Shown: piece by piece, positions 22,651 to 63,089 of the stretch | Position numbering within the stretch: the stretch's first letter is position 1 | Layout of the letters: the number at the start of each line of letters is the position of its first letter | NCBI RefSeq assembly: GCF_018449605.1 | Contig: NZ_JAAVUW010000008.1 | Coordinates: forward strand, 1-64,000 | Direction: 5' to 3' | Origin: Luteibacter sp. dw_328 | GTDB taxonomy: Bacteria > Pseudomonadota > Gammaproteobacteria > Xanthomonadales > Rhodanobacteraceae | Length of the DNA: 64,000 bases | The notes under the pieces: generated by a model | Told to the model about the DNA's origin: nothing | Database searches by the model: none | The model's input: only the letters and a program-made list of their open reading frames with translations | Position numbers and translations under genes: made by a program

Positions 22651-22666
22651 GATGCCTTGAAGAAAA

Positions 22667-23029
<363 letters not shown>

Positions 23030-42256: not shown

Positions 42257-42257
42257 G

Positions 42258-45781: not shown

Positions 45782-45788
45782 GGTCCGC

Positions 45789-46707: not shown

Positions 46708-48393
46708 TTAGGCTCCGGCGCGTGAAGGAACAATAGACCGAAAGGTGGGGCCGACGGTCACGCAACGGTCGGCCAGGACGGAAACGCCTTCCCGATGGGA
46801 CACGACGATCAGCAGGCTTCGTGACAGGCGACGCTTCATCGCCGAGAGCACGGCCAGTTCCGAGGCCGCGTCCAATGCTCCGGTCGCTTCGTCGAGCACG
46901 GCGACGGCGGGCTCGCGAAGGATGACCTGGGCCAGTAGCAACCGTTGCAACTCGCCGCCGGAAAGACGACTCGACACGTCGTGCAAGGTGGTGTCCAGAG
47001 GCTTGTCGAGGCCGACCTCGCGCAGGACCTCGCGCAGTTGCCCGTCCGTCGCCGATGCCGCAGCCCAACGCAGGCACTCACGGACGGTCGCCTGCCATGG
47101 CCGCACACTCTGGCTGACGTAGGCGCCATGACTGACATAAGCGCGGTATGCGTCGTAGTGGATGGCATGCCCGTCGACACGCACGTCAAAGATGGCAGGT
47201 CGCGCCATGCCGGCAAGCACATCGACGAGGCTGCTCTTGCCGATACCGGAATCGCCCTGGATGAGGACGAGCTCCCCGGGACGCATGACCAGGTCGACAA
47301 GTTCGATGCCGGGAACCGGCGGCGTGACGTGGATGCGCCGGAGGTGGATGCCGCTGGCCGGAATCGCCGGCAACGCGGTCGACGCGGGCGGCGTGTCCGA
47401 AGCTGCCAGGTTCATGTAGCGCCGCCACAGCGCGAAGGCGGGCGCCGCCGAGCGCATCTGTTGCATGCTCTGCCGCGTCGAGACCAGGTAGGGCAACAGT
47501 CGGCCGAGCAGCAGGCACACTGCGATCAGCGCGCCCTGATCTATGCCGTGCCAGCGTTGCGCAACGACGAAGAGCAGGGCGATACCGCCTACCGCCAGCA
47601 GTTCGAGCATCAACCGGCCCGACGCGATCAGCTCCAGTTGGCGCGCATAGCCACGTGAGAGGTCTTCTGACACCTCGCCGAAGCTGTCGCGTTCGGTGTG
47701 CTCGCGGCCGAATGAGCGTACGTGTCGCAGCCGGCGGGGGAAGTCTTCGCTGTGCCAGAAAAGGCGGGTGATGTCGGCGACGTAGCGGCGGGCCACCTCC
47801 ACCTGTTCGCGGCCGTAGAAACGCGAAGCCAGCAGGGCAAGGACGGCCAGCGGCGGTGCGACCAGCAGGAGCAGCGGCGACACCCAGAACGCCAGCGAAA
47901 GGCTGACCGCCGCGGTGATACCGGCGACGAGAAGCTGCTGCAGCGCGCTGAAGGCCTGCACGATGATCTCCACGTTGTGGGTAAACACGTTGGCGATCTC
48001 CGCCGAGCTGACGCCGGCGAGCGGACCGATCTCGGCGGCGATCAGTCGTGCATGCACCTGCCGGCGCAGGCGCATGCCGTAGCGGCCGGTCAGGCGCGCG
48101 CCGAGACACGCGGCCTGCCAGCGCAGCAGGGCGAAGGAAAGCGTGACGGCGGTAAAGGCCGCGATGCGCCAGCCCACGCTCATGGAGGCATGGAACCAGC
48201 GACCGTCGAACGGTAACCGTGCATCCGGCTGCACCAGCGGCACCAGCAACACGGCGGCGAGAGCGCCGGCGAATGCCGAGCCCAGGGAAAGCGCAACGTA
48301 GATACCGACTTTCCAGCGGTCTGCCAGCGGTAGAGTCCTAGCGAGCGATCTCAACAGATCACGCAGACCGGCGCGCGGCGTCGCGACATTCAT
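46708..48393 (-). CDS. ABC exporter, fused membrane and ATPase domains
   Basis: A 561-residue type IV ABC half-transporter with no C39 peptidase domain. Five to six membrane helices lie within about 30-330. The ATPase has Walker A GDSGIGKS at 380-387, signature LSGG at 477-480 and Walker B VAVLDE at 497-502. The ATG at 48393 is 2 nt after the stop of the HPr-kinase-like gene, so the two are coupled. Peptide, lipid-linked sugar or another modified product could be its cargo. The neighbourhood does not decide. Confidence 0.88.
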   Translation of the reverse strand: MNVATPRAGLRDLLRSLARTLPLADRWKVGIYVALSLGSAFAGALAAVLLVPLVQPDARLPFDGRWFHASMSVGWRIAAFTAVTLSFALLRWQAACLGARLTGRYGMRLRRQVHARLIAAEIGPLAGVSSAEIANVFTHNVEIIVQAFSALQQLLVAGITAAVSLSLAFWVSPLLLLVAPPLAVLALLASRFYGREQVEVARRYVADITRLFWHSEDFPRRLRHVRSFGREHTERDSFGEVSEDLSRGYARQLELIASGRLMLELLAVGGIALLFVVAQRWHGIDQGALIAVCLLLGRLLPYLVSTRQSMQQMRSAAPAFALWRRYMNLAASDTPPASTALPAIPASGIHLRRIHVTPPVPGIELVDLVMRPGELVLIQGDSGIGKSSLVDVLAGMARPAIFDVRVDGHAIHYDAYRAYVSHGAYVSQSVRPWQATVRECLRWAAASATDGQLREVLREVGLDKPLDTTLHDVSSRLSGGELQRLLLAQVILREPAVAVLDEATGALDAASELAVLSAMKRRLSRSLLIVVSHREGVSVLADRCVTVGPTFRSIVPSRAGA

Positions 48394-48395: not shown

Positions 48396-49439
48396 TCAGG
48401 CGCTCGCGAGGTGGCGTGAGGCCAGCAACGGCCGCAAGGCATCCACCGAAGCACGCGGATGCCTTCCACGCCGGAGTACGTGGACATCCATCTCCGCAAG
48501 CCGATGGACGAATCGGTGCCATCCGGCCTGACCGGCCGCATAGGGCTGGTCAGCGAGCAATCGTGCGGCAATGTCGTCGTGGGAGAGCGGGAGGAGCATG
48601 TCGGCGTCATCGGCCGCCGTTTCGGCAGAAACGAACACGGCACCCACCAGGGCCAGGGGTGCGGTCGCGACATGACCGTAACCCTGGCGAAGATCCGCTT
48701 CGAACTTCTCCACGCCGCTGCGACGGCGGATGGTCGGCGAATCCGCGATCCAGCGGCGCAGCGGACCCTCGTCGATGAAGCGCAAGGCATCCTCGCGCAC
48801 ATGCAGGAAGTTGCCGACGCCACGCGCTTCCATGCTGCGGGGATCGACGAAGATGGCATCCTCGGCGACGAACTCCATTCCCTCGAGCAGACCATGCAGG
48901 GCAAGCGTGGACTTGCCCGCACCACTCGCTCCGAGCAGGAGTACGCCGCGGCCGTCCAGGCCCAGGCAGGCACCGTGCAACGGGAGCAGATCCATCCCGC
49001 GTGCGGCCAGCACGAAGACCGCGAACTCGATCAGTTCGTAACGTACGTGATAGGGCCAGTCGAGCATGTCTTCGGACACGACCACGAGGGCCCGTTGGCG
49101 CCCGTGGTCGATGATGACGTAGTTGGACGCATCCATGATGCCGCACAGCAGACCCGCGCCGGATTGCGTGAGCACCGGCGGCGGCTCGTCCCAGGCCGGC
49201 GCGTGACGCCGCGGCGAGAGGCGTAGCTCGATATGAAAGCCCGGCAGCGGCGTGTCCGGCACGTCGCGCGGCAAACCTCCGTAGGCAGCCTCCACCGGCT
49301 CCAGAAGCTCCGGATGGGTGCTGTCGAAGCGGAAACGGGCACCGAGGATGGTCTTGACCATGACGAAGGGATAAGGCGAGCGCTCGAGGAAGGGATCGGC
49401 GCCAATGTCGCCAATGCCCGGAGGGGTGATCTGGGCCAT
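48396..49439 (-). CDS. HPr kinase-like protein (HprK-related kinase A type)
   Basis: The 347-residue protein resembles the HprK-related kinases found with nucleotidyltransferases and PqqD-type proteins in polymer or peptide loci, not true HPr kinase. The P-loop GASGAGKS is at 170-177, preceded by LLPLHGACLGLDGRGVLLL (His155) and followed by FVAEDAIFVD. The start at 49439 (MAQITPPGIGDIGADPF) is chosen from the family N-terminus; the frame is open further up. No ptsH is present. It is divergent from the radical SAM gene across 151 bp. Confidence 0.82.
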   Translation of the reverse strand: MAQITPPGIGDIGADPFLERSPYPFVMVKTILGARFRFDSTHPELLEPVEAAYGGLPRDVPDTPLPGFHIELRLSPRRHAPAWDEPPPVLTQSGAGLLCGIMDASNYVIIDHGRQRALVVVSEDMLDWPYHVRYELIEFAVFVLAARGMDLLPLHGACLGLDGRGVLLLGASGAGKSTLALHGLLEGMEFVAEDAIFVDPRSMEARGVGNFLHVREDALRFIDEGPLRRWIADSPTIRRRSGVEKFEADLRQGYGHVATAPLALVGAVFVSAETAADDADMLLPLSHDDIAARLLADQPYAAGQAGWHRFVHRLAEMDVHVLRRGRHPRASVDALRPLLASRHLASA

Positions 49440-49590
49440 GCGGCATCCCGGCTGGTGTAACCGTGGGTGCGGCAGCCCTGCGGAAAGGTTGCGCACGAGC
49501 TTGCGAACGCGGCAATGCGACTTTCGAGGCAACCCTCGCATCGCACGGGGGCACTCACCAGCCAAACGCGATCATCGAGGCGCTCCCGAC
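49440..49590. promoter_or_regulatory. Divergent promoter region, kinase and radical SAM operons
   Basis: The 151 bp gap between opposite-facing start codons must hold promoters for both sides. I do not see a convincing sigma-70 pair. Tandem similar blocks (GCGGCA, TTGCGCACGAGCTTGCGAAC) suggest possible regulator sites. Confidence 0.45.
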
Positions 49591-51081
49591 ATGCTCAAGA
49601 TTCAGGTCGGCCACTCCTACTTCCTTCGATACGACCCGAAGCAGTGGGAACGTGGCAAACCCTATCCACCGCTCGCCACCATCCAGGTGGCCGCACTGCT
49701 TCGCGAGATGGGCCATGAACTGGCCTTGTTCGACGCGATGCTGGCCGACGGCGTCGAAGACTACGCCGGCGCGCTGCGTGCCGCGCAGCCCGACCTCGTG
49801 GTGATTTACGAAGACAACTTCAATTACCTGACGAAGATGTGTCTGAGCCGCATGCGCGATGCGGCCTGCCAGATGATCGCCGAGGCCCGCGCCAGCGGCG
49901 CTCGGGTCATCGTTGCCGGCTCGGACGCATCGGACCAGCCGGAGGCGTTTCTTGCCGCGGGAGCCGATGCGGTGCTGGTCGGCGAAGGCATCGCCGCGCT
50001 CGCGGCCCTGGTCGACCGGCTGCAACACACGCCGGATATCGACCCCGCGCGCTGGACGGCTGGCCTTCCCGGCGTCGCCACCCTCGTCGAAGGACAGACG
50101 CAGCTGGTGCGCGTGGGAGCGGTACCACCGGACCCCCGCGTGGTGGGTCGCCCTGCCTGGGACCTGGTCGACATCGAACGTTACCGCTCCCTCTGGCAGG
50201 AACGGCACGGCTACTTCAGCCTCAACATGGCAGCATCACGTGGCTGCCCGTTCCGCTGCAACTGGTGCGCCAAGCCGATCTGGGGCAACCATTACAAGCA
50301 ACGCAACGCCGAGGACGTCGCCGCCGAGATGACCTATCTCAAGCGTACGTTTCAACCCGACCACATCTGGATGGCCGACGACATCTTCGGTTTCCATGTC
50401 GGCTGGGTGACGGCCTTTGCCGAACATCTTCGCGATACCGACGGCTCCATCCCCTTCACCATCCAGACCCGAGCCGACCTGGGCAGCGACCGCATGGTCG
50501 CCGCCCTCGCCGAGGCGGGTTGCGCCGAGGCGTGGATCGGTGCGGAAAGCGGAAGCCAGCGCGTCCTGGATCGCATGAACAAGGGCACGACCGTGGCCGA
50601 ACTGATCGCGGCACGCCGCCGCTTCGGCGAGCACGGCGTACGCGTGGGCTTCTTCATCCAGCTGGGTTACCTCGGCGAGCAGCTCACCGACCTGCTTGCA
50701 ACGCGCGACCTCGTCGCCGAGGCCGCGCCCGACGATATCGGTGTGAGCGTGTCGTATCCGCTACCGGGCACCAAGTTCTACGAGGAAGTGAAGGAACAAC
50801 TTGGCAGGAAGACGCATTGGCGCGACAGCAACGACCTGGCGATGATGTTTCGTGGGGCCTATGACTCCGACTTCTATCGCAGCATGCGCGACCTGCTTCA
50901 CCAGCAGGTGAACCTGCGCCAGTCGCGCGACACACTTTCAGCCGCTCGACGCAGTGAGGCGCATGCCCTGCTCGAAGCGAACTGGAACACGCTGTTCGCG
51001 CATGAGGCCGAGCATCGCTCGGAACAGCCCACGCCATCGCCGTTCTCGGCGATGCAGACGATCGCCTTGCCCCTACTGTAG
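49591..51081 (+). CDS. Radical SAM protein with B12-binding-like domain (plus strand)
   Basis: A 496-residue radical SAM enzyme. The N-terminal Rossmann domain (about 1-170) resembles cobalamin-binding domains, but I see no DxHxxG, so cobalamin may bind base-off without His or not at all. The [4Fe-4S] motif CPFRCNWC places cysteines at 219, 223 and 226. An Elp3-like SPASM-free barrel follows (ADDIFGFH, AWIGAESGSQRVLDRMNKG). The ATG is 49591; the longer frame runs through the divergent promoter. It forms an operon with the nucleotidyltransferase 8 nt downstream. Confidence 0.88.
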   Translation: MLKIQVGHSYFLRYDPKQWERGKPYPPLATIQVAALLREMGHELALFDAMLADGVEDYAGALRAAQPDLVVIYEDNFNYLTKMCLSRMRDAACQMIAEARASGARVIVAGSDASDQPEAFLAAGADAVLVGEGIAALAALVDRLQHTPDIDPARWTAGLPGVATLVEGQTQLVRVGAVPPDPRVVGRPAWDLVDIERYRSLWQERHGYFSLNMAASRGCPFRCNWCAKPIWGNHYKQRNAEDVAAEMTYLKRTFQPDHIWMADDIFGFHVGWVTAFAEHLRDTDGSIPFTIQTRADLGSDRMVAALAEAGCAEAWIGAESGSQRVLDRMNKGTTVAELIAARRRFGEHGVRVGFFIQLGYLGEQLTDLLATRDLVAEAAPDDIGVSVSYPLPGTKFYEEVKEQLGRKTHWRDSNDLAMMFRGAYDSDFYRSMRDLLHQQVNLRQSRDTLSAARRSEAHALLEANWNTLFAHEAEHRSEQPTPSPFSAMQTIALPLL

Positions 51082-51089
51082 ATATCGCC

Positions 51090-52313
51090 ATGATGCCCTC
51101 CCTGAAGCTCGTCCGTAGCGGTCTGCACCGCACCACCGAGGCGCTCGCCGCGGAGCTCGCACTGGCCAGGCCGGGCAGCCGGGTTCCCGCGTGGACCGAC
51201 CTCGAATGGCGACTGGCTTCCGCGGTGGCCGTGGCGCACGGCGTCTCGCCCCTGCTCAGCCGCCTGTCGACCTGGCAGAAGCCTGCGTGGCGGGCGTTCC
51301 TCGCCGCCCAGCGCGAGCATGTCGAACAGCGGCATGGCCGCATCGCCGCCCTGCTGGAGCGTATCGACGACGGAGCACGCGACATCGGTGTGGCGATCGT
51401 CCCGTTGAAAGGCTCGGCTTTGCACGCGCTGGGGATCTACGCTCCGGGTGACCGTCCCATGGCCGATATCGACCTTCTCGTTCGCGAACAGGATGTCGGC
51501 CCCACGACCGCCCTGCTGCTGGAGCTCGGCTACGAGGAATCATTCGCGCAATGGAAGCACCGCGTGTTCAAGCCGATCGATGGCAGCATCATCGCCGGCC
51601 TCGGCGAACACCGCGACACACCGGTCAATATCGAACTGCACGTGCGCATCCAGGAGCGGCTTCCGATCTCCACCGTCGATATCACCTCGCGCGTCTACCC
51701 TCGTCCTGCGCGACCCGGGCTCAATCCCTACCCGTCGAACGGCGCACTGATGAGCCACCTGCTACTGCACGCCGCGGGTAACGTCTGTGGACGGAGCCTG
51801 CGGCTCATGCATCTCAACGACATCTCGCTGCTGGCAACCCGCATGCTGGCCAGCGACTGGCAGTCCTTGTGGGACGACGGCGCACCCGGCTCCGCATGGT
51901 GGGCACTGCCACCGCTTCGCCTGGTGGCGCGCTACTACCCGCACGCCGTGCCGCCCATGGTTCTCGCACGGCTGGAACGCGAGTGCCCTCCCCTGCTACG
52001 TCGCCTGTCGCGACGGTGGACGCTGACCGATGTGTCCTGCTCGGACCTGTGGCTACATGCGCTGCCAGGCGTGGAGTGGTCCCGCAGTCTGGGCGAGGTG
52101 GCACGTTGTGTGCGCAATCGCCTGCAGCCCTCGGCGGAGAGCGTGAAGGAACGCGCGGACATGGTGCGCACGCAGGTGTGGCTGCAGGGCCAGAGCTGGG
52201 TGACCCAGGGACATCGTCGCCGCATTCTCACCTGGCTGACCCGGCCGGTGCCGCGCATGGACACGTTGTACGTCGTGCGCGCCGCGCTCGAGCCTGCCGC
52301 GCCGCTTTCCTAG
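51090..52313 (+). CDS. Nucleotidyltransferase-family protein (NTP_transf_5-like)
   Basis: A 407-residue protein with the minimal nucleotidyltransferase pattern: IVPLKGSAL (Lys107), then RPMADIDLLV with the DxD aspartates at 126 and 128, and IELHVRI with a further acidic residue. Proteins of this type occur beside HprK-like kinases in exopolysaccharide and modified-peptide loci; their substrates are mostly unknown. It follows the radical SAM gene by 8 nt. Its stop codon overlaps the stop of the convergent glycosyltransferase within CTAG. Confidence 0.82.
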   Translation: MMPSLKLVRSGLHRTTEALAAELALARPGSRVPAWTDLEWRLASAVAVAHGVSPLLSRLSTWQKPAWRAFLAAQREHVEQRHGRIAALLERIDDGARDIGVAIVPLKGSALHALGIYAPGDRPMADIDLLVREQDVGPTTALLLELGYEESFAQWKHRVFKPIDGSIIAGLGEHRDTPVNIELHVRIQERLPISTVDITSRVYPRPARPGLNPYPSNGALMSHLLLHAAGNVCGRSLRLMHLNDISLLATRMLASDWQSLWDDGAPGSAWWALPPLRLVARYYPHAVPPMVLARLERECPPLLRRLSRRWTLTDVSCSDLWLHALPGVEWSRSLGEVARCVRNRLQPSAESVKERADMVRTQVWLQGQSWVTQGHRRRILTWLTRPVPRMDTLYVVRAALEPAAPLS

Positions 52314-53428
52314 GCCACCACGGCGCCGCGACGTGCGAGCAACTCCTGGTACAACGCCTCGAAGGCCCGTGCGGTGTAGTCGGCATCCTCGGCGAGCGCG
52401 CGGCGTTGCGCGGCTTCGGCCAGGCGGAAACGCAGCGTCTCGTCGACCAGGACGCGCTGGATCGCGGTGGCCAGGCCCACCCAGTCGCCCACCGCGACGG
52501 CGAGCGCCGCGGACGGCGACCATTCCGCGATATGCCCGACGGCCGTACCGACCGTCGGCACGCCGGCGATCGCCGCTTCAAGCAGCACGAGCGGTCCGGC
52601 TTCGTGGATTGAAGACATCACCAGCAGGTCGGACGCTGCGATCAGGGGACGCAACTCGCTCTGGGTTCGGAAACCAAGGAAGCGCACGTGCGCCTCGAGC
52701 CCCAGCTGGCGGGCAAGCCCGTCCATTTTCCCCTGCAAGGTGTCGACACCGACGATATCCATCTGGAAGTCCACGCCGGCGTCGCGCAGTGCGGCCAGTG
52801 CGCGCAGCAAGGTTGTCTGGTCCTTGACCAGGTTGAGACTGGCCACATGCATCAGGCGCGCTCGCGGCGTAGCGCGGCGCCGGGGGGGCAACGGCGACCA
52901 CGCCGCGATGTCCACACCGAGCGGGATGCGGCGTCCCGTGATACCTAGCGCGGCAAGCGCATCGATGATCGGTGCACTGGCCGCCGTCACGGCATCCGTC
53001 ATGCGCAGCACGATCGCTTCGCGCAGCCGTCCTTTCCAGCGGCGACGTCCGCCGTAGCCGATGGCGTGGAAAGCGACGAGCTCGCCGCCAGCGATGTGCA
53101 CCAGACTTGCTATACGCAACAGTTTCGCCGCCGCGACGGCGACGAAACTGCACGAACCGGAGAAGATCGCGTGGACCATGGCGAACGGGGCCCGACGGTG
53201 CTCTGCGCGAATCGCGGCGATCGCGCGCAGACGTGGCCAGCCCTCGCCGATATTGTGTATGGTCGCGCCTGCCAGCTGCCAGGTGGCCGGTAGCGGTTCC
53301 TGGTGCAGGACGAATACATGCACCTCATGGTGGCGCGCGAGCCGCGCGATGAGGGCAAGGAACACGGGGATCACCCGGTACTCGCCGGTACGATCCATGC
53401 CACCCGGCACCACGACAGCGATCTTCAC
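52310..53428 (-). CDS. GT4-family glycosyltransferase, first of a pair
   Basis: A 372-residue GT-B enzyme. The N-terminal domain has VVVPGGMDRTGEYRVIPVFL. The C-terminal donor-binding region has MHVASLNLVKDQTTLLRAL, VRFLGF and the E-x7-E motif HEAGPLVLLEAAIAGVP. The GTG at 53428 overlaps the previous gene's stop by 4 nt (GTGA) and follows GGAGGG. The ORF could extend upstream but without family similarity. It is the last gene of the eleven-gene minus-strand polymer unit. Confidence 0.88.
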   Translation of the reverse strand: MKIAVVVPGGMDRTGEYRVIPVFLALIARLARHHEVHVFVLHQEPLPATWQLAGATIHNIGEGWPRLRAIAAIRAEHRRAPFAMVHAIFSGSCSFVAVAAAKLLRIASLVHIAGGELVAFHAIGYGGRRRWKGRLREAIVLRMTDAVTAASAPIIDALAALGITGRRIPLGVDIAAWSPLPPRRRATPRARLMHVASLNLVKDQTTLLRALAALRDAGVDFQMDIVGVDTLQGKMDGLARQLGLEAHVRFLGFRTQSELRPLIAASDLLVMSSIHEAGPLVLLEAAIAGVPTVGTAVGHIAEWSPSAALAVAVGDWVGLATAIQRVLVDETLRFRLAEAAQRRALAEDADYTARAFEALYQELLARRGAVVA

Positions 53429-54549
53429 GATCGACCCTCCCGCCTGTCGGCGAGCAGGCGCGTGTACGCATCGGCCCATTGCCGGCCCACGGCGGCGAAA
53501 GAAAGCGTGGCATCGAAGAACGCACGTACGTCCGCCCGGGATGGCCGGATGCCGGCCGCGCGCACCAGCACCTCGGCAAGGCGAGCCGCATCGCCACAAG
53601 GCCAAAGCTCGCCAACGACGTTACCCGTTAACGAACGGAACGACGGAATATCCGTGACGACCGGCGTGACACCACAGGCCAGTGCCTCGAGCAGCGCGAA
53701 GCCACAGCTCTCGGCGTGACTACCCGACACGAAGAGGTCGGCCGCACGCATGAGTGTTTCGACACGCGCATGCGGCTGGTTACCAAGAAGATGCACGCGG
53801 CCGTGCAAGCGAGGATCGCTGTCGATCTTGTGGCGTACCTCGTCCAGCAGGGGCGCGCTGCCGAAGGCGAAGTAGATCTGTATGCCGGGAAGGCGCTGCG
53901 CGGCGCGCGCGACACCTTCGAGCACGGTCAGCGGATCCTTGCCGTGGCTGAGATGCCCCACACACAGCACACAGGGATCGCCGCGCAATCCTGTTTCGAC
54001 GCGTGCGGCCTGATGGTCGCCCGGCTGAAAGCGGCTGCTCGATTCAGGGATGGCGAACAGCCGCGTGCGCTGCGCGAACAGGCCGGCACGCGTGAATGGC
54101 CCGGCCAGTCCCGGCGAGGTGAAAGCGATGCCGGAAGCCGCCGCGTACCACGTGCGCCACCGCGCCCGCCGCCACCATCGTGGTAGTCGATCCGCATGGT
54201 CCTGGATCAGGATGGGCACGCGCGGCAGGCGTCGGGCGACGGCGAAGGCGTCGGCGGCGAAGCCAAGGCTGTGCACGTGTACCACCTGGCTGCCGATATC
54301 GGCGACCAGGTCGGCGAGAAAGCGGCCCCGCGTCTTCGGGGAATGCATGCCGCGAAGATCGACGAAGTGATAGTCGATACCATGTCGACGGAGCAGCTGC
54401 TGCCGTGTCGCCACCTGGATCACCGACACGCGCGTTCCCGACGCTGCTGCCGCCTCGGGGATATCCGCCAGCGACGGCCAGCGCTCGAACAATTCCTCGG
54501 GCGAGCAATCCGCCGGCGCGCGAAGAAAGTTTATCTGGGCGACATGCAC
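53425..54549 (-). CDS. GT4-family glycosyltransferase, second of a pair
   Basis: A 374-residue GT-B glycosyltransferase. The acceptor domain includes VVHVHSLGFAADAF. The donor domain includes CVLCVGHLSHGKDPLTVLEG, VHLLGNQPHARVETLM and the E-x7-E motif HAESCGFALLEALACGV. It starts 13 nt after the radical SAM stop and is coupled to the next glycosyltransferase. The sugar specificity cannot be read. Confidence 0.88.
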   Translation of the reverse strand: MHVAQINFLRAPADCSPEELFERWPSLADIPEAAAASGTRVSVIQVATRQQLLRRHGIDYHFVDLRGMHSPKTRGRFLADLVADIGSQVVHVHSLGFAADAFAVARRLPRVPILIQDHADRLPRWWRRARWRTWYAAASGIAFTSPGLAGPFTRAGLFAQRTRLFAIPESSSRFQPGDHQAARVETGLRGDPCVLCVGHLSHGKDPLTVLEGVARAAQRLPGIQIYFAFGSAPLLDEVRHKIDSDPRLHGRVHLLGNQPHARVETLMRAADLFVSGSHAESCGFALLEALACGVTPVVTDIPSFRSLTGNVVGELWPCGDAARLAEVLVRAAGIRPSRADVRAFFDATLSFAAVGRQWADAYTRLLADRREGRS

Positions 54550-54562: not shown

Positions 54563-56107
54563 CTAGAGACCGGAGACCTGGGGCATGCGCAGGCGCACGA
54601 GCCGGTTGGCGAGGTTGAGCTCCCAAGGCCGGTCGTACTGGCGGCGACGGTAGCGCCATGACGCCATCGCGCTCAGGCCACGCTTGGCCCATGACGGCGA
54701 GCGCAGGTCCTGCACCGTCGGAAAGCGACAGCGCAGCACGGTCACGAAGTCCTGGATGTGCCGGCGCAGCTCGTCGGTGAGCCAGGGCGCATCGGCGTGA
54801 CAGGCATAGTCCACCCAGCGACGCTCCGTCCACTCCTCGGGTGAGGAAGGGAAGACCACCGGCTCGCCATGCAGGTCGAGCAGTGGCATGGACGCATGCT
54901 TGCCGCGATCCTTCTCATGCTTGCTGCTTTCGGGCAGCGGCGTGTAGATGTAAACGATGATTTCCGACGCCGGATTGATCCGCTTCAGTTCGCGGATGAA
55001 CTCGAACGTGTGCTCGGTCTCCTCCAGCGTGTTCTGCGGCGGCGCCACCATGAACGAGAGTTCGGGAATCACTCCATTCTTGCGGCACAGTTCCGCCACC
55101 TGCAGGGTCTGGTCAGGGCGCGTGCCCTTGCGGATTTCCTTCAGCATGGCGCCGCTCGGCGACTCGGCACCCACGTAGGCCATGCGCAGGCGACTTGCGC
55201 GCACCAGTTCCCAGGTGCTCTCGGAGAGATTAAGCAGTGCGTCGGAACGGGCGTAGCACCACCAGGGCATTTCCAGCTTCGCCATGACTTCGAGCAACGG
55301 AATCATTTCCACTTCACGATCGAAGAAATTGTGGTCGAAGAACTGGATCGAGTCGGCGCCCAGTTCGTACTTGAGGTAGCTGAGGTCGCGTTCGAGCCGC
55401 TTGGCCGTGGGCAAGGCGGTCATGCCGCCGAACATCGCGTTCACACCGCAGAAGGTGCAGCGGAAGCGGCAACCGATGGACGCCTGGTGCGCTGCCGTCC
55501 GCTCGCCCAGGAAGGTGCGCGCGAGGTACCGGCGAGGATCGCCCAGCTTGTCATAAGGAAGCACGATGCCACCGTCACTCAGCGAGAAACGCCGGTTGGG
55601 ATTGTGCACAACCGCCCCATCGCGCTTCCAGGACAGGCTGCCGATGTTCGAGACGGCGGGCTCGCCGGGTCGGCTCAGGGCCGCGACCAGTTCCGGCAGG
55701 CTCTCTTCGGCCTGCCCGCGTATCGCGTAATCGACATACGACGCCGAAAGCGCCGTGTCCGTGTAGAGCGTCGGGAAGTAGCCACCCCAGATGATCGGCA
55801 GCTGCGGATAGCGCTCGCGGATAAAGCGGGAGACTTCGATGGATGGCGCGACCTGGGGACCGCCCATCACACTGATACCGACGGCGTCGAAGCGATCGCC
55901 CTCGATCGCGGCCCGCGTGGCCCCGATGAGATCGCGGTCGACATTGCCGTCGATGATCTGGCTATGCCCGTTGTGATCCAACGCGGCCGCCAGATTCAGC
56001 AGCGCAAGGGGAAAGCGTGCGCTCGAACGCGACGTCATCGTCGGGTTGATCAGCAACGTCCTCGGCAAACGCCCCATGTCAGGCGTCGATGTGTCGAATA
56101 GGCTCAC
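54563..56107 (-). CDS. Radical SAM protein with B12-binding-like domain (minus strand)
   Basis: A 514-residue enzyme. The N-terminal domain (about 15-150, with TLLINPTM and VGISVMGGPQVAPSIEV) has the B12-binding fold without a clear DxHxxG. The cluster motif CRFRCTFC has cysteines at 213, 217 and 220. The barrel includes QFFDHNFFDRE, MAYVGAESPSGAMLKEIRKGT and SFMVAPPQNTLEET. GTG at 56107 overlaps the methyltransferase stop (GTGA). It is only distantly similar to the plus-strand radical SAM at 49591, so the two are unlikely to be a recent duplicate. Confidence 0.86.
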   Translation of the reverse strand: MSLFDTSTPDMGRLPRTLLINPTMTSRSSARFPLALLNLAAALDHNGHSQIIDGNVDRDLIGATRAAIEGDRFDAVGISVMGGPQVAPSIEVSRFIRERYPQLPIIWGGYFPTLYTDTALSASYVDYAIRGQAEESLPELVAALSRPGEPAVSNIGSLSWKRDGAVVHNPNRRFSLSDGGIVLPYDKLGDPRRYLARTFLGERTAAHQASIGCRFRCTFCGVNAMFGGMTALPTAKRLERDLSYLKYELGADSIQFFDHNFFDREVEMIPLLEVMAKLEMPWWCYARSDALLNLSESTWELVRASRLRMAYVGAESPSGAMLKEIRKGTRPDQTLQVAELCRKNGVIPELSFMVAPPQNTLEETEHTFEFIRELKRINPASEIIVYIYTPLPESSKHEKDRGKHASMPLLDLHGEPVVFPSSPEEWTERRWVDYACHADAPWLTDELRRHIQDFVTVLRCRFPTVQDLRSPSWAKRGLSAMASWRYRRRQYDRPWELNLANRLVRLRMPQVSGL

Positions 56108-56811
56108 GCGATGCGCCTCAGCTGAAAGACCAGGGCCACGGGAAGTTCGAGGGCCATCGGGTCGAAATGTGCGCCGACGGGGATATCGGCAGGATCGAGC
56201 ATGGGTTCTTCCACACGCTCGATGGCCAGGCCGAGCGCCGCGCACGCCGCGTGCCAGTGGCTGTAGAGGTGCCGCGTGTGGCGTACGGCATAGCGCCGGC
56301 CTTCCGCGCGAAAATCGCGCTGCCAGCCCAGTGCATGACCGATCGGGTGCACGTCGCTGCAGAGGATTCGCCCACCGGGACGCGTCGCCCGACGCAGTTC
56401 CGCCAGTGCGGGCGCGAGCGCCTCAAGGTGCCCGATGGTCAGGCCACACACGGTCAGGTCGGCCAGCGAACCGGGCAACGGCAGGTTGGCGAGATCGCCC
56501 TGGCGAAGGTCGGCACGGCCATCGGCGATAGCGCTGCCAAGGGCCTCACGCGCGCGCTCCAGCATCGCGGGCGAAAGGTCCACGCCAGTGACATGGGCTG
56601 CGTCACGACGCAGTGCATGCAACAGGTAACGACCGCTGCCGCAACCCGCGTCGAGTACGTGCCGGCCTCGTAGCACCTCGGGCATCAGCGCCAGCATCGC
56701 GCGCTCCTCGGCCATCATCACCGGGTTGTGCGCGTGCGCGGGGTAGCACGATGACCAGAGCGCATAGGCTTCAAGCGGCTCGAGCACCGGCAAGGGGGAC
56801 GTCAGTGACAC
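56104..56811 (-). CDS. Class I SAM methyltransferase (first in polymer unit)
   Basis: A 235-residue SAM-dependent methyltransferase. Motif I is VLDAGCGSGRYLLHAL, motif II VTGVDLSPAMLERA, followed by DLANLPLPGSLADLTVC and the post-motif RPGGRILCSDVHPIGH. The GTG start overlaps the amidohydrolase by 10 nt. The substrate is unknown: a sugar hydroxyl, a lipid carrier or a radical-SAM product are all possible. Confidence 0.85.
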   Translation of the reverse strand: MSLTSPLPVLEPLEAYALWSSCYPAHAHNPVMMAEERAMLALMPEVLRGRHVLDAGCGSGRYLLHALRRDAAHVTGVDLSPAMLERAREALGSAIADGRADLRQGDLANLPLPGSLADLTVCGLTIGHLEALAPALAELRRATRPGGRILCSDVHPIGHALGWQRDFRAEGRRYAVRHTRHLYSHWHAACAALGLAIERVEEPMLDPADIPVGAHFDPMALELPVALVFQLRRIA

Positions 56812-58038: not shown

Positions 58039-58881
58039 TCAGCGCCGGTGCATCACGATGAGGAAGTGATCGCCCATGTCGCGCAACAGTGGCAGCTTGC
58101 CGAAGCGATCGTCGAGACGACCCAAGCGCTCGTACCAGCCCGGCCGACGCTCGTAGCGATCGACCATGTACGGCGGCGGCATGAACAGGCTCAGTGCGCT
58201 ATAGCCGGCGAGCCGGAACTGCCCGGCGAAGGGACGATAGAACTCGCGCGGCAGGTAATACTTCGTCCAGATGGTATGGCGATTCATACCCACCGCCGTC
58301 GCGCCACGCGCTCCACGCACCGCCGCCCTGCGGAACCGGCCGCGCAGGGCGTAGTGCGCCGCTTCCCAGGGACAGATGCGGCCCATCACCGAGAAGACCA
58401 TGACGCCGCCCGGACGCAGGAGGCGCGCGCACTGCGCGGCCACGTCGTGCAGATCGGGTGCGCAGTTGAGCGGTCCGAAGTTGGAATAGACGCCGTCGAA
58501 GCTGCCGTCGAACGTGTCATCGAGACGGCCGAGCTCCTGGACACCGAGGTGCCTGGCGGTGAGGCGACCGCCCAACGAGGGGTCGCCCGCACGGGCCGAC
58601 GTGCGCGCAACCATCGATGGCGACCAGTCCGTCGCCATCACCTCGTAGCCGCGCCTCGCGAATTCGGACGCATCGATACCTGTGCCGCAGCCGATATCGA
58701 GCAGGTGCGAGCCTCGACCCAGTTCGCCCACGACGGTATCCCAGAGTGTCTGGCGCATGCGCTGGATGAGTGCATTGTTGCCGCGCGGACCGTCGTAGTC
58801 GGCGGCGACACTGTCGAACGCCCGCTGCGTGTCGAGCAGACGCGCGTCGTCGATCGGTTCAGGTGTCGATTGGGCACTCAT
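58039..58881 (-). CDS. Class I SAM methyltransferase (second in polymer unit)
   Basis: A 280-residue methyltransferase with AFDSVAADYDGPRGNN, motif I LLDIGCGTGIDASEFA, MATDWSPSMVA and RPGGVMVFSVMGRICPWEAA. The C-terminal segment (about 200-280) includes YYLPREFYRPFAGQFRLAGY. It starts 26 nt after the Wzz-like stop and lies 4 nt before the amidohydrolase start. Confidence 0.85.
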   Translation of the reverse strand: MSAQSTPEPIDDARLLDTQRAFDSVAADYDGPRGNNALIQRMRQTLWDTVVGELGRGSHLLDIGCGTGIDASEFARRGYEVMATDWSPSMVARTSARAGDPSLGGRLTARHLGVQELGRLDDTFDGSFDGVYSNFGPLNCAPDLHDVAAQCARLLRPGGVMVFSVMGRICPWEAAHYALRGRFRRAAVRGARGATAVGMNRHTIWTKYYLPREFYRPFAGQFRLAGYSALSLFMPPPYMVDRYERRPGWYERLGRLDDRFGKLPLLRDMGDHFLIVMHRR

Positions 58882-58907
58882 AGTCGTTCGTCTTCCGGTG
58901 TGTCGGA

Positions 58908-59744
58908 TCAGTGAGTGCCGGGCGAACGTGCTTTGGTTGAACGACGCCGTAGCGCATTGCGTCCGATCGCCGCCACGCCGGCAAGGAACAGGCCGAACAC
59001 GATGCCGATACCGATGCCGAGCACGCTGTTGGGGAAGGCACGACCTGCGGGCGCAAAGATGGGCCATGGCGTGGAGGTGTCGTAGGTATAGTTCGGCGCG
59101 AGGCGCACGACGAGTTCGCTGCGCGCCTGCTGCAGCGCGCGGATGTCTTCGTTCTTGCTGGCCAGCAGGACACCGGCGAGCGCTGCCGCGGCATGGTCGG
59201 CGGACGCGGTAGCGCTCACCAGGCGGTCGCGGTCGGCGAGGGCGATATGCAGGTTGCTGTCGAGTTCATCGAGGCGATCGTTGGCCAGCTTCAGCGGCAA
59301 GGCGCCGATGCGCGCGTGGATGGCCTGCAATTGGTCGAGTGTCGCCTTGGCCAGATCGCTCGCCTGCTGCGCCGAATAAGCACGGACGCTGACCTTCAAG
59401 AGGTTGGCATAGGGCTCGGGATCGACCTTGAAACTCCTGTTATACAGGCTCGCCTCGGAGGAACCGGACGAAAGACCGAGGCTGGCAACCACGCTGTCCC
59501 GGAAGGCAGCGGTCTGCAACCGCGAGATCACGCGCTGGAACGGCTCGACCTTCATATCCTGGCCGGTCGGCGCGGACCCCACCTGGCCCACCTGTATCCA
59601 GACGGTGGCTTCCCATTGGCTGCGTGCCGTGTGCACCCAGGCAAACGTGAGCCCGAGCACCATGACGAGCACGGCGACGAACCAGCGCCACTCCCGAAGG
59701 AAGATGTGCCATAGGTCGATCAGATAGATCTCGTCTTGTTCCAT
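58908..59744 (-). CDS. Wzz/GumC-like polysaccharide chain-length protein
   Basis: A 278-residue polysaccharide co-polymerase. It has a cytoplasmic N-terminus with IDLWHIFLREWRW, membrane helix 1 (about 20-37), a large periplasmic helical domain with coiled-coil potential (about 130-200), and membrane helix 2 (about 245-265). No C-terminal kinase domain is present. Such proteins set chain length with Wzy polymerases. It overlaps the Wzy-like gene by 25 nt. Confidence 0.85.
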   Translation of the reverse strand: MEQDEIYLIDLWHIFLREWRWFVAVLVMVLGLTFAWVHTARSQWEATVWIQVGQVGSAPTGQDMKVEPFQRVISRLQTAAFRDSVVASLGLSSGSSEASLYNRSFKVDPEPYANLLKVSVRAYSAQQASDLAKATLDQLQAIHARIGALPLKLANDRLDELDSNLHIALADRDRLVSATASADHAAAALAGVLLASKNEDIRALQQARSELVVRLAPNYTYDTSTPWPIFAPAGRAFPNSVLGIGIGIVFGLFLAGVAAIGRNALRRRSTKARSPGTH

Positions 59745-60892
59745 GCGTGGGGCTCGTGGGGAAGTGGGAGAGTGACATCGTCACGCCGCGTCGGCAGCAA
59801 GGCAGCGAACAGCTGCATGAGCAGGCAGAGGATGACGAAGGCGGCATTGGTCCAGATGAAGGCCTGCGGTGCGAAGGGTGACATCAGGCAGACATAGGCG
59901 ATGCGCAGGAAGATCAGCAGCGAGAACAGCGACACCGAGGCGCGTAACCGGCGCACGCTCCACAGCAGCAGGGCGTAGAGCAGCAGCATCGAAGCGACGG
60001 CGCCCCAGGGGCCGTAGGCCAGCAGGAACGGCAGGAACTCCGTACCCACGTTGATGTTGGGCGCATCGAAAGGAATATCCGCCGCAGCCAATGTGGTGGG
60101 TCCGCTGAGCGGAATGAGCTGCCCGATCAGGATGGCCGCGTCCGTATAGCCCTTGGTCACCATCGATGCGAAGTTGTAAGGACCGGCGCTGACGTAAAGC
60201 GCCAGCCACTTGATGCCCTGCGGCGCAGCGCGGTAAAGCGCACTGAAGGGCAGGTTCACGTTGTCCAGCGAACCCGAACGCACCGCGCCAAGCACCGAGA
60301 ACACGGTCGCGCCGAGAATGCCGATGAAGCCGACCGACTTCCACGGCAACGGACGGCGCACGTCGCGACGGAACAGGATGACCAGAGCGAAAGAAAACAG
60401 CGCTGCGAAGATACGGTTACGGTCGATCACCAGCACCGGAAACACCAGGCCGATCATGATGAGTGCATTACGAAGGCCGCGCTTACGCGTGCAAAGCAAT
60501 CCGATGGGCGGCAGCGTCCAACAAAGTGAGGAAATATGTCGCACGTGCTCGCGCCCTGGCTCCATCGTGGCGTACGAGGCCGGATTGTCGATCAACGGTA
60601 TGGGAAACAGCGCCAGGTCGAGACCGCAAAAGACGATCACGACCGCGGCGAAAACGAGGGCGACGAAGGCTTCGCGGCTGCCCGTGTAGTCACGGGCGCG
60701 GAATCGTGCGATCGAAGGCAGGCGGATCGCCGCGAAGGCATCGAACAGGATGATGCCGACGGCCGCCATCACCAGCAGTAACATGCCTTCGAGGTATCCC
60801 GCCGGCAGATCGTAGGCGAGCGCGGTGAGCCCGCAAGCGAACAGCAGCGGCCACGCGATATAGCTCGACGGCTGGCGGAGAATGCGATTCAT
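59720..60892 (-). CDS. Wzy-like oligosaccharide-unit polymerase
   Basis: A 390-residue polytopic membrane protein with about ten helices and a large loop containing DNPASYATMEPGREHVRH. Wzy proteins share little sequence, so this call rests on topology, on the RNRIFAALFSFAL and NINVGTEFLPFL regions typical of O-antigen polymerase-like proteins, and on lying between Wzx, GT2 and Wzz genes. Start 60892 overlaps the glycosyltransferase stop (ATGA). Confidence 0.75.
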   Translation of the reverse strand: MNRILRQPSSYIAWPLLFACGLTALAYDLPAGYLEGMLLLVMAAVGIILFDAFAAIRLPSIARFRARDYTGSREAFVALVFAAVVIVFCGLDLALFPIPLIDNPASYATMEPGREHVRHISSLCWTLPPIGLLCTRKRGLRNALIMIGLVFPVLVIDRNRIFAALFSFALVILFRRDVRRPLPWKSVGFIGILGATVFSVLGAVRSGSLDNVNLPFSALYRAAPQGIKWLALYVSAGPYNFASMVTKGYTDAAILIGQLIPLSGPTTLAAADIPFDAPNINVGTEFLPFLLAYGPWGAVASMLLLYALLLWSVRRLRASVSLFSLLIFLRIAYVCLMSPFAPQAFIWTNAAFVILCLLMQLFAALLPTRRDDVTLPLPHEPHAWNKTRSI

Positions 60893-61836
60893 ACGCCCTC
60901 CGCATGCGAGTGCGCCGTACGGCGCAGCCGCAGCCTCGACAGCGCAATCAGGGAAACGTAGGTAGCCAGGTGCAGCGCCACGCGTGAGTGGCGCTTTTGC
61001 AGGAAAGCGATCTTCGCGCCGATGTACTGTGCCTGCGCACGGAGCAGCGTGCGATACGGCTCGTCGAACAGGCAAAGCCGGCTCATCGCCACCTCGCGCG
61101 ATTCGACCAGGTTCACGATCCGCGTCGCGGTGTGCCGTGTCTTGCTGAAATTGGCGCCATGCAGCCGATAGGCACACACAGTGACATCGATGAAGCCGAT
61201 CGCGTCACGTGCGGCCAGGCGAAGGAACATGTCCCAGTCATCGATGCGCAGGCCCTCGGTCCAGCGCGCAACGGTCTCCAGCACGCTCTTGCGCAGCAGT
61301 GTCACCGGCCCACCGATCGCCCAGTGCCCGATCACGGCACGACGGATACCGTCGCTGGAGTCGTAGAGCCGCTTGTCGGCGCCGTGCAGATCGATCATTC
61401 CACTGTCGTGGAGCCGGTTGCCTTCGCCGTCGATGACGATCGAATCGCCGATGACCGCGCCCTTGTTCCTGTGCGACATAAGGTAGCGAACCTGCGCCTC
61501 CAGACCACCAGGCAAGAGGTAATCGTCACTGGCGCCGATGCGCAGGTATTCGCCATGTGAGCGGGCGGCCAGTTCGTTGAGCGTCGCCGCGATGCCGCGG
61601 TTCTCGCGGCGGACGAACTCGACGGGAATCTCGCTGCCGTGGGCCGCCACCCAATGGGCGATGCGCTCGGCCGTGTGGTCGGTGGATCCGTCATCGATGA
61701 TGACGATCTCCTTGGCCGGGTACGGATCCTCGAGCACGCTATCAAGGCATCGCTGCACGAAACCCTCGTGATTGAACGCGGGAATCAGTACCGATACCAG
61801 CGGAGCATGTGACCACTCGTATAGGTCGACGGTCAT
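60889..61836 (-). CDS. GT2-family glycosyltransferase
   Basis: A 315-residue GT-A enzyme. The N-terminal catalytic region has VSVLIPAFNHEGFVQRCLDS, IVIIDDGSTDHTAER, RRENRGIAATLNE and the ASDD (DxD-like) motif. The C-terminal helices (about 255-310) may touch the membrane. It overlaps the Wzx stop (ATGA) and the Wzy start (ATGA), so the three are translationally coupled. Confidence 0.9.
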   Translation of the reverse strand: MTVDLYEWSHAPLVSVLIPAFNHEGFVQRCLDSVLEDPYPAKEIVIIDDGSTDHTAERIAHWVAAHGSEIPVEFVRRENRGIAATLNELAARSHGEYLRIGASDDYLLPGGLEAQVRYLMSHRNKGAVIGDSIVIDGEGNRLHDSGMIDLHGADKRLYDSSDGIRRAVIGHWAIGGPVTLLRKSVLETVARWTEGLRIDDWDMFLRLAARDAIGFIDVTVCAYRLHGANFSKTRHTATRIVNLVESREVAMSRLCLFDEPYRTLLRAQAQYIGAKIAFLQKRHSRVALHLATYVSLIALSRLRLRRTAHSHAEGV

Positions 61837-63089
61837 GTGCGCAGCCCTCCGAGGTAGTGCCGGACCACCAGCAGGTTGAAGATCAGGTAGCCCACGTAGT
61901 TGATGGCGAAGGCGTACATCGCGCCGACCAGGCCGAAATGTGCCGTGCACAGGTAGACGAGCAGCAGGTAGCTCACACCGAAGGCGATCTCGGAGGCCAC
62001 GAACAGGCGGGTCATGGCCTTTGCCAGCATCACGTAGGAAAGTACGAACGACGCAATCTTGACCACGTCGCCCACCAGTTGCGGTGCGTAGAGCCCTTCG
62101 GCCGACGTGAAGTCCGCACTGAAGAGAATCCGCGTCACCCAGTCGCGGGCCACGTACACCAGGGCGGCAAGCACGAGCACGACCGGCAGGATGTGCCGGT
62201 AGGCATTACGCAACTCGCCGACCAGCGCTCCACGTTCACTGATCGAGGCGAGCTTTGGCAGGTAGTAGATATTGATCGCCGCGGTGAGGAACAGCAGGTA
62301 GGCGTCCGACACCTTGCTCACGGCCTGCCAGTTGCCGACCTGTTGCCAGCCGAACTGGAGCGCGAGGTGATCGCGTACCGCGATGTTCACCAGCGGCGGA
62401 AGCAAGGCCGAACTGATCGTCATCAACGAGAAGGCGGCGAGCCGGCCGTTCATTTCGCGATCGAAGCGCAGCCGCGGCAGGCTCTGGCGGAAGTACGGGC
62501 TGCGCCACCACGAGGGAAGGGCCACGGCGAGCCACGCCAACTGGCCCAGGACGAGGGCGAGCAACGCGCCGTAGAGCTGGAAACGACTGGCCAGCCACGC
62601 GGCCATGGCGATGCCGAGCACCGAACCGATCACCTGGATGAAAGCCAGGCGCCGCACGTCCATGAAACCATTGATCACGGCCAGCACGTAGTTCACGGCA
62701 GCGATCCCCAGTTGGGCGACTGCGAGAACGCGGATAAGGCTCTCGAAACCGGCGTCGCCGAGAATCCAGACGGCCAACTGCCGGCTGAACACCAGTGCGG
62801 CCAACCCCATCAGGCACGATGCGCAAAGCGCGTAAGAAAGCGCCGCGGCGAGCAGGCGCGAAAGGCGCTGCGGGTCGCCGCGATACTCGGCCACATACTT
62901 GACGATGCCGGCGCTGATACCACCGCCGGCAAGCACCGCCAGCAGCGACATCAGGCTCATGAACTGCCCCAGCCGGCCGACGCCTTCGGGCCCGGCGAAC
63001 CATGCCACCAGCTTGATGACGACCAGGCCGGCCAGCAGCCGCGCGGCGGTGCCTATCGCTGAATAGAAACCGGCGCGCGCCAGGCTCAT
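61833..63089 (-). CDS. Wzx-type lipid-linked oligosaccharide flippase
   Basis: A 418-residue MATE/MOP-fold flippase with about twelve helices. The N-terminal [24 protein letters not shown] and [13 protein letters not shown] resemble the WzxE (enterobacterial common antigen) flippase. It presumably moves the undecaprenyl-linked repeat unit to the periplasm. Start 63089 overlaps the aminotransferase stop (ATGA); the longer frame is antisense to the aminotransferase end. Confidence 0.88.

What the first reader, a model, noticed from the sequence alone, without database searches (positions are those of the whole stretch)
48396..52313. HPr-kinase-like protein with exporter, divergent from radical SAM and nucleotidyltransferase
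Directly seen: an HprK-like P-loop protein coupled to an ABC exporter on one strand, and a radical SAM enzyme with a DxD nucleotidyltransferase on the other, separated by 151 bp. Known: HprK-related kinases and NTP_transf_5 proteins co-occur in polymer and modified-peptide loci, usually with a PqqD-like protein. Here no PqqD-like ORF, lasso-type cyclase or clear precursor is visible. Inference: a kinase/nucleotidyltransferase pair that phosphorylates or nucleotidylates a radical-SAM-modified glycan or peptide before export, in a form without PqqD.
Basis: partly seen in the sequence, partly recalled or inferred. Interest (0 to 1): 0.72.

Follow-up and report, generated by a model that had tools for sequence, protein, structure and literature searches.

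The report
Sigma-controlled kinase module for sugar polymers
Four genes for a kinase, a nucleotidyltransferase, a radical enzyme and an exporter travel together in many soil and plant bacteria as part of a sugar-polymer locus that appears to be switched on by its own sigma factor, which makes an unusual way of decorating bacterial glycans testable.

Summary
An HprK-like kinase (K), an ABC exporter, a B12-binding radical SAM enzyme and an NTP_transf_5 protein (N) form two divergent operons 151 bp apart. They occur in the same 91 of 233 genomes of the family. K is neither ordinary HPr kinase nor HprK-related kinase A. No PqqD lies nearby and no precursor gene was found.

In those 91 genomes the cassette goes with the amidohydrolase of a Wzx/Wzy exopolysaccharide locus, seen in Luteibacter, Dyella, Rhodanobacter, Frateuria and Xanthomonas. 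The unexpected part is regulation: the spacer holds two back-to-back copies of GCAACC-N16-GCACTCAC. The same site precedes the MT2 gene, the sugar operon and an ECF sigma factor gene 18 kb away. With two mismatches allowed it is in 73 of 75 (radical SAM side) and 65 of 75 (K side) spacers, always with spacing 16. Orthologues of the sigma factor follow the cassette.

Best reading: an ECF-controlled glycan-tailoring module in which K phosphorylates and N caps the phosphate, as in phosphoglycosylated lasso peptides. The chemistry is inferred; a peptide substrate is not supported. New variant of a known kind.

The parts
46708..48390 (-). ABC exporter (half-transporter), same operon as the kinase; start uncertain
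   Evidence: ABC_tran 81.6 and ABC_membrane 40.6 bits; in 91 of 233 genomes; in 74 of 80 named loci
48396..49439 (-). HprK-like kinase (K), own subfamily
   Evidence: Hpr_kinase_C 32.0 bits; NCBIfam HprK models 30-34 bits against cut-offs of 200-240; model pLDDT 89.5, best PDB matches PEPCK (E 4.8e-7), then HPr kinase (E 4.6e-4); H155, G170, G173, G175, K176, T178, E193, D194, E247, R251 invariant in 46 rows
49463..49492 (-). promoter-like site GCAACC-N16-GCACCCAC in front of the kinase-exporter operon
   Evidence: at most 2 mismatches in 65 of 75 spacers, all with spacing 16
49529..49558 (+). promoter-like site GCAACC-N16-GCACTCAC in front of the radical SAM-nucleotidyltransferase operon
   Evidence: at most 2 mismatches in 73 of 75 spacers, all with spacing 16
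49591..51081 (+). B12-binding radical SAM enzyme (rSAM1)
   Evidence: Radical_SAM 61 and B12-binding 37 bits; CxxxCxxC cysteines invariant in 21 rows; in 91 of 233 genomes
51090..52313 (+). NTP_transf_5 nucleotidyltransferase (N)
   Evidence: 97.7 bits; K107, G108, D126, D128, E182 invariant in 46 rows; model pLDDT 88.8, best PDB matches ANT(2'')-Ia (E 3.5e-3) and, lower, LnuA (E 2e-2), none at E 0.001
52310..53431 (-). GT4 glycosyltransferase a; beside the kinase in divergent relatives
   Evidence: Glycos_transf_1 85.5 bits; in 69 of 80 named loci
53425..54549 (-). GT4 glycosyltransferase b
   Evidence: 62.4 bits; 65 of 80 loci
54563..56245 (-). second B12-binding radical SAM protein (rSAM2; true start probably further in); not detected in the 24 Xanthomonas loci
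   Evidence: 42 of 80 loci
56104..56811 (-). methyltransferase MT1
   Evidence: Methyltransf_11 76.2 bits
56802..58034 (-). amidohydrolase
   Evidence: Amidohydro_1 58.4 bits; in 93 of 233 genomes: the 91 with the kinase plus G012 and G014 (lists compared by eye)
58039..58884 (-). methyltransferase MT2, first gene behind an internal promoter-like site
   Evidence: Methyltransf_25 59.3 bits; also beside the kinase in L121, L125 and L130
58911..58940 (-). promoter-like site TCAACC-N16-GCACTCAC in front of MT2
   Evidence: at most 2 mismatches in 37 of 48 MT2 upstream regions
58908..59744 (-). Wzz chain-length protein
   Evidence: PF02706 31.8 bits, cut-off 25.5
59720..61177 (-). Wzy-like polymerase (assignment by size, membrane-protein look and position only)
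   Evidence: no Pfam match; homologous frame at this place in the four stretches with this part of the locus complete, L145, L146, L147, L144
60889..61950 (-). GT2 glycosyltransferase (start uncertain)
   Evidence: PF00535 87.1 bits
61833..63344 (-). Wzx flippase (start uncertain)
   Evidence: Polysacc_synt 40.1 bits, cut-off 28.2
63086..64000 (-). DegT sugar aminotransferase; runs out of the window. On the contig follow FdtA (L031:212-736, -), the ECF sigma gene (C20:68012-68596, +), a weakly matching anti-sigma gene (C20:68593-69231, +) and a subtilase gene (C20:69228-70526, +)
   Evidence: DegT 313.4 bits; FdtA 152.4, Sigma70_r4_2 43.8, Peptidase_S8 114.5 bits; anti-sigma 30.3 bits against a cut-off of 100

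Best explanation
The four genes are a glycan-tailoring module inside a Wzx/Wzy exopolysaccharide locus whose operons share promoter-like sites, probably read by an ECF sigma factor encoded at the far end of the locus. Shown here by computation: shared presence, conserved order, invariant catalytic motifs, a shared site, and a sigma gene that follows the cassette and has the same site in front of it. Inferred: that this sigma factor reads the site. Inferred: K phosphorylates a hydroxyl on a sugar intermediate; N then works on that phosphate, adding a nucleotidyl or glycosyl group so that a phosphodiester is formed, as the kinase and nucleotidyltransferase of the lasso peptide pseudomycoidin do on serine. 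The B12 radical SAM enzyme alters carbon centres, probably by C-methylation, with the locus's other methyltransferases acting on the same unit. The ABC protein moves the tailored unit or its lipid-linked donor across the inner membrane alongside Wzx. Glycan substrate about 0.75; the phosphorylate-then-cap order about 0.3.
For: Same 91 of 233 genomes for all four genes and for the locus's amidohydrolase, which has two more. Wzx, Wzz, GT, DegT and FdtA genes in the locus. Divergences of the genes agree (r 0.89-0.97; shared descent alone would give this too). Promoter-like site, two mismatches allowed, in 73 of 75 and 65 of 75 spacers, 37 of 48 MT2 and 32 of 74 exporter upstream regions, against 1 of 69 for GT4a and 1 of 77 for N, which lie inside operons. 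Of 105 sites (one mismatch) in 16 cassette genomes, 62 lie within 30 kb of K, about 1.35% of the sequence. Sigma orthologues of 307 bits or more in 76 of 197 genomes: 74 of the cassette set plus G012 and G014; next best 197 bits. Of seven perfect sites outside the locus in these genomes, all read, two face a methyltransferase 80% and 64% identical to one inserted in the locus of L034 and two face an acyltransferase. Lasso precedent: passages of PMC8498205.
Against: No substrate, product or phenotype is known. In the divergent loci L121, L125 and L130 MT2, K, GT4a, N and rSAM1 stand together with no hit to the window's Wzx, Wzy or ABC, so the module may make something that is not a polymer; no convincing site was found beside K in those three. 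In Xanthomonas the radical SAM side site is weak: 22 of 24 spacers at two mismatches, 2 at three, none better. Ten of 75 spacers lack the K-side site at two mismatches. In the window alone, five matches at two mismatches compare with a chance mean of 1.6, and 1 of 100 shuffles reached five. The spacers are related sequences, so counts are not independent. G434 has none of its 3 sites near K. The two acyltransferases behind outside sites are only 24% identical to each other, and three of the seven outside sites face nothing clear. Wzy has no profile match; no initiating glycosyltransferase or Wza/Wzc was recognised in the locus, and the genome was not searched for them.
Confidence: 0.55

Rival explanations
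1. K and N make an activated building block: K phosphorylates a free polyol, hydroxy acid or unusual sugar, N turns the phosphate into an NDP derivative, and GT4a transfers it.
For: Kinase, nucleotidyltransferase, glycosyltransferase is the usual order for NDP-sugars (known biochemistry, not a call). In L121, L125 and L130 K and GT4a stand in tandem beside N and rSAM1. The fold nearest to N is a small-molecule nucleotidyltransferase, weakly.
Against: N looks like a polymerase-beta-type protein and not a GT-A sugar nucleotidylyltransferase (classes recalled); the described N partner of an HprK-like kinase adds hexose to an already phosphorylated product (PMC8498205 passages).
Confidence: 0.25
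2. The product is a secreted glycolipid or small glycosylated metabolite, with the polymer genes only neighbours.
For: Compact module with no Wzx or Wzy hit in divergent relatives; an exporter gene in 91 of 233 genomes; several methyltransferases.
Against: None of the 91 cassette genomes of the family lacks the locus's amidohydrolase, and the polymer operons share the promoter-like site.
Confidence: 0.12
3. The four genes tailor a ribosomally made peptide.
Against: No convincing small ORF in the spacers (the best frame in front of rSAM1 in Xanthomonas shows one-base gaps in the rows displayed); no PqqD; embedded in a polymer locus.
Confidence: 0.06
4. K is a protein kinase that regulates the polymer machinery and does not modify the glycan.
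For: HPr kinase itself is a regulatory protein kinase (known); K shares its fold.
Against: Would not explain the fixed linkage with N and rSAM1. No search for a protein substrate was made.
Confidence: 0.06

Closest known systems
Lasso peptide kinase plus nucleotidyltransferase (paeninodin K; pseudomycoidin K and N)
   Same: HprK-like kinase, nucleotidyltransferase and ABC exporter genes in one locus (PMC8498205, passages read; that those nucleotidyltransferases belong to NTP_transf_5 is recalled)
   Different: No precursor found, no PqqD-type chaperone, no leader peptidase or cyclase among the genes scanned; polymer genes and B12 radical SAM proteins instead
HprK-related kinase A/B systems (TIGR04352, TIGR04355), said to go with PqqD (recalled)
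   Same: Same P-loop kinase superfamily
   Different: K scores 29.9 and 33.6 bits against cut-offs of 200; no PqqD
HPr kinase/phosphorylase
   Same: Fold and P-loop region
   Different: 32.2 bits against 240; not beside rpoN, hpf, rapZ or ptsH-like genes as the kinases of L140, L141 and L142 are (genes named by eye)
Wzx/Wzy exopolysaccharide loci with FdtA/DegT amino-sugar genes
   Same: Wzx, Wzz, GTs, DegT, FdtA
   Different: Contains the K/N/rSAM1/ABC cassette and an ECF sigma factor gene with a shared site
ECF sigma factor and anti-sigma modules with a self-regulated promoter
   Same: Sigma region 2 and 4 domains, weak anti-sigma match downstream, site 30 bases in front of the sigma gene
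   Different: No report tying such a module to this locus among the listings (one search listed 12 of 19)

Membership tests
HprK-related kinase A (TIGR04352) | Score above the curated cut-off of 200 bits | tested here: not met
   29.9 bits
HprK-related kinase A (TIGR04352) | PqqD-family partner (recalled as typical) | tested here: not met
   0 in the own genome; 6 of 24 cassette genomes have one, none at the cassette
HPr(Ser) kinase/phosphatase (TIGR00679) | Score above 240 bits | tested here: not met
   32.2 bits
HPr kinase C-terminal superfamily (PF07475) | Score above the gathering cut-off of 33.3 bits | tested here: inconclusive
   32.0 bits, just under
HPr kinase C-terminal superfamily (PF07475) | P-loop and HprK/PEPCK fold | tested here: met
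   PEPCK and HPr kinase are the structural matches; P-loop residues invariant in 46 rows
NTP_transf_5 (PF14907) | Score above 31.2 bits and DxD | tested here: met
   97.7 bits; D126 and D128 invariant in 46 rows
Lasso peptide cluster | Leader peptidase and asparagine-synthase-like cyclase | tested here: not met
   None among the genes scanned
Lasso peptide cluster | Precursor peptide | tested here: inconclusive
   No candidate in a limited search of frames of 20-120 aa
Wzx/Wzy polysaccharide locus | Wzx flippase and Wzz | tested here: met
   40.1 bits (cut-off 28.2) and 31.8 bits (cut-off 25.5)
Wzx/Wzy polysaccharide locus | Wzy polymerase | tested here: inconclusive
   Conserved 485-aa frame at the expected place, no Pfam match
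Wzx/Wzy polysaccharide locus | Initiating glycosyltransferase and outer-membrane export | not tested
   None recognised in the genes read; the genome was not searched
ECF sigma regulon | Sigma factor gene, shared site in front of target operons and of the sigma gene itself | tested here: met
ECF sigma regulon | This sigma factor starts transcription at these sites | not testable with these tools
   Needs transcript mapping

The most novel reading that the evidence does not exclude
The kinase-nucleotidyltransferase pair known from phosphoglycosylated lasso peptides has a second life on polysaccharides: a PqqD-free module (MT2, K, GT4, N, B12 radical SAM) that builds a phosphodiester-bearing, carbon-methylated glycan, placed in Xanthomonadales under a dedicated ECF sigma factor that also drives distant methyl- and acyltransferase genes.
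Probability: 0.3. Interest if true: 0.8.

Novelty: new variant of a known kind. Interest (0 to 1): 0.62.

Why it matters
It would link a kinase/nucleotidyltransferase pair known from peptides to surface glycans in a widespread group of soil and plant bacteria, Xanthomonas included, and give HprK-like and NTP_transf_5 proteins a substrate class to test. The promoter-like site makes the regulon readable from sequence, so the tailoring genes of each genome can be listed and the trigger of the sigma factor sought. The locus here has two B12-binding radical SAM proteins, and one weaker site in this genome precedes a cobalamin riboswitch, so a link between B12 and polymer tailoring is testable.

Tried and rejected
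Peptide precursor: 2,634 frames of 20-120 aa from four kinds of spacer were compared all against all. Of 80 loci, 74 gave the divergent spacer, 65 the K-exporter gap, 64 the N-GT4a gap and 72 the stretch behind the exporter. Only the top rows were read (46 overall, then 14 for each of three kinds). They are the end of N, frames that I read as opposite to inserted genes (a peroxiredoxin-like gene, a methyltransferase gene), and frames listed from Xanthomonas alone. One of the last, in front of rSAM1, is well conserved, but the alignment shows one-base gaps in the five rows displayed of 19, so I take it for a conserved leader. Shorter, longer or fast-changing precursors, and ones elsewhere in the genome, were not excluded.

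Ordinary HPr kinase and HprK-related kinase A: rejected by scores and neighbours. In the order search 66 of 299 genomes had a hit; 52 have one of 247 bits or more, and every other hit is below 32 bits.

Plasmid or phage origin: no plasmid match to the cassette, no relative of K confirmed in viral contigs, no tRNA found in the window.

Wider spread: of 274 genomes drawn from the class, the own genome and three weak partial matches. Of 95 relatives found in named genomes 80 were kept; the most divergent (L121, L125, L128, L130, L131) are titled only Gammaproteobacteria.

Literature: ten searches; nothing in the listings points to this locus. Passages were read in PMC8498205, PMC2883993 and PMC8336823; the last two mention radical SAM proteins that appear to be others, which was not tested. 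Other papers were seen as listings only. The pseudomycoidin paper is not held and is known here through the review.

Not finished: an rSAM1 alignment failed on a row with an internal stop and was not repeated. No sigma factor or K/N complex was modelled.

Full report
What is there. K (48396-49439, -) and an ABC exporter (about 46708-48390, -) form one operon. A B12-binding radical SAM gene (rSAM1, 49591-51081, +) and an NTP_transf_5 gene (N, 51090-52313, +) form the other. K matches the HPr kinase superfamily only around its P-loop and is far below every named HprK model. By sequence the PDB holds no close relative of K (best E 0.0048, HPr kinase) or N (best E 0.09, unrelated).

Conserved unit. 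Among 233 genomes of the family K, rSAM1 and the exporter were found in 91 each and N in 92. By eye these are the same 91; the 92nd is a contig-end fragment in G014. In some genomes contig breaks or rearrangement separate the genes (for example G068, G069, G090). Among 80 named loci kept out of 95 relatives, rSAM1 was found in 78, N in 77, the exporter in 74 and GT4a in 69. In 74 of the 80, K and rSAM1 stand head to head within 900 bp. The titles include Luteibacter, Dyella, Rhodanobacter, Frateuria, Pinirhizobacter and Xanthomonas; same-genus genomes of the window match Luteibacter records.

It belongs to a polysaccharide locus. The neighbouring minus-strand genes are two GT4, a second radical SAM protein, two methyltransferases, an amidohydrolase, Wzz, a Wzy-like frame, a GT2, Wzx and DegT, followed outside the window by FdtA. 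The amidohydrolase is in 93 of the 233 genomes: the 91 with K plus G012 and G014, which are fragmented assemblies. In relatives (L146, L147) a NeuD-type acetyltransferase stands with FdtA and DegT; it is not between them here. This points to a 3-amino-3,6-dideoxy sugar (pathway knowledge, not tested). The spot between N and GT4a is variable; L034 has two methyltransferase genes, a sulfotransferase and a flavin reductase gene there.

Divergent relatives. In L121, L125 and L130 the order is MT2, K-GT4a, N-rSAM1, with no hit to the window's exporter, Wzx or Wzy in the stretch held (tblastn at E 1e-8, so distant forms could be missed, and L121 is only 5.8 kb). The exporter was either added later or lost there; no rooted tree was made.

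Catalytic signs. In 46 aligned K rows the P-loop residues listed in parts, H155, E193-D194, E247 and R251 never vary. In 46 N rows K107-G108, D126, D128 and E182 never vary. The K model (pLDDT 89.5) resembles PEPCK and then HPr kinase. The N model (pLDDT 88.8) resembles small-molecule nucleotidyltransferases weakly, with no match at E 0.001. Both look like working enzymes; what they act on is unknown.

Shared regulation. Word counts in 75 spacers (74 loci and the window) showed AAAGGTTGC in 51, against 4-6 for the commonest 9-mer in five shuffles. This resolves into two back-to-back sites GCAACC-N16-GCACTCAC. With spacings of 15, 16 and 17 allowed, every spacer site at two mismatches or fewer had 16. 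The rSAM1 side has such a site in 73 of 75 spacers (7 of 1,500 single-base shuffles), the K side in 65 of 75 (5 of 1,500). MT2 upstream regions have it in 37 of 48 and the exporter's own upstream in 32 of 74. GT4a and N, which lie inside operons, have it in 1 of 69 and 1 of 77. The agreement is uneven: in Xanthomonas the rSAM1-side sites all have two (22) or three (2) mismatches, while the others have 32 perfect, 15 with one and 4 with two.

Sites in whole genomes. In the window, two mismatches allowed, there are five matches against a chance mean of 1.6 (1 of 100 shuffles reached five); three of the five are the sites described, with 0, 0 and 1 mismatch. In the own genome six of 15 sites (one mismatch; 4 for the pattern read backwards) lie between C20:49463 and 67981: before K, rSAM1, MT2, FdtA, a cytochrome b561 gene and an ECF sigma gene at 68012-68596. 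In 16 cassette genomes 62 of 105 sites lie within 30 kb of K, about 1.35% of the sequence by rounded genome sizes; the backwards pattern has 27 sites in all in these 16. Three genomes without the cassette have 3, 0 and 4 sites (backwards 3, 2 and 0). The pattern came from the spacers, so the spacer sites are not independent of it; those before MT2, FdtA, b561 and sigma, and those outside the locus, are.

The sigma factor. Orthologues of 307 bits or more are in 76 of 197 genomes drawn from the family: 74 of the 91 cassette genomes plus G012 and G014. The next best is 197 bits. The other 17 cassette genomes are not in the list; 36 of the 233 were not drawn, and the output does not say which. One of the 17, G151, has the gene in a fetched stretch (L147). 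A weakly matching anti-sigma gene and a subtilase gene follow. That this factor reads the site is inferred.

Outside the locus. All seven perfect sites outside the locus in the 16 genomes were read. Two face a methyltransferase gene, 80% and 64% identical to one inserted in the locus of L034; the first is followed by a flavin reductase gene 75% identical to its neighbour in L034. Two face an acyltransferase-3 gene, but these two are only 24% identical to each other. Three face nothing clear. Five one-mismatch sites were read too, of the 36 outside: one stands 65 bases before a cobalamin riboswitch (107.6 bits) and a TonB receptor gene, one before another TonB receptor gene, three before nothing clear. 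At this background these are leads only.

Mechanism. The lasso precedent, a kinase that phosphorylates serine and a nucleotidyltransferase that adds hexose to the phosphate, was read in passages of a review (PMC8498205). Here a like pair sits in a polymer locus, so I propose phosphorylation then capping on a glycan intermediate, with B12 radical SAM and other methyltransferases acting on the same unit. That order of steps is inference (about 0.3); the glycan context is better supported (about 0.75).

Verdict.

Noticed in passing
L136 has a lasso-like cyclase frame, 217 bits against a cut-off of 525; three neighbouring frames look like tail-collar proteins, by eye only.
   Followed up: partly
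L102, L114, L120 (Xanthomonas): rSAM1 (L102), N and GT4a (L114) and the exporter (L120) each appear in two pieces, so the cassette may be decaying in some lineages, or the assemblies carry errors.
   Followed up: no
contig C20:64661-67945 (L031:661-3945); also L125 and L130: A cytochrome b561 gene shares a divergent pair of sites with the sugar operon and is followed by a protein with a CxxCH motif; CxxCH proteins also stand beside rSAM1 in L125 and L130 (by eye).
   Followed up: partly
L150 (own genome C1:744000-748000): A one-mismatch site 65 bases in front of a cobalamin riboswitch and a TonB receptor gene.
   Followed up: partly
L039, L040, L043 between K and the exporter: An inserted peroxiredoxin-like gene (by eye).
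   Followed up: no
G063:C1:3013010-3013573: A second close copy of the sigma factor (332 bits) far from the locus copy in one genome.
   Followed up: no
window 40871-46433: GGDEF-, EAL- and outer-membrane-type frames and a carboxypeptidase-regulatory-domain gene follow the exporter; this arrangement recurs in L032, L033 and L050 of 20 large loci and in L052 of 80.
   Followed up: no
window 22663-23029 (-): RNase P RNA gene, class A (318.4 bits).
   Followed up: no
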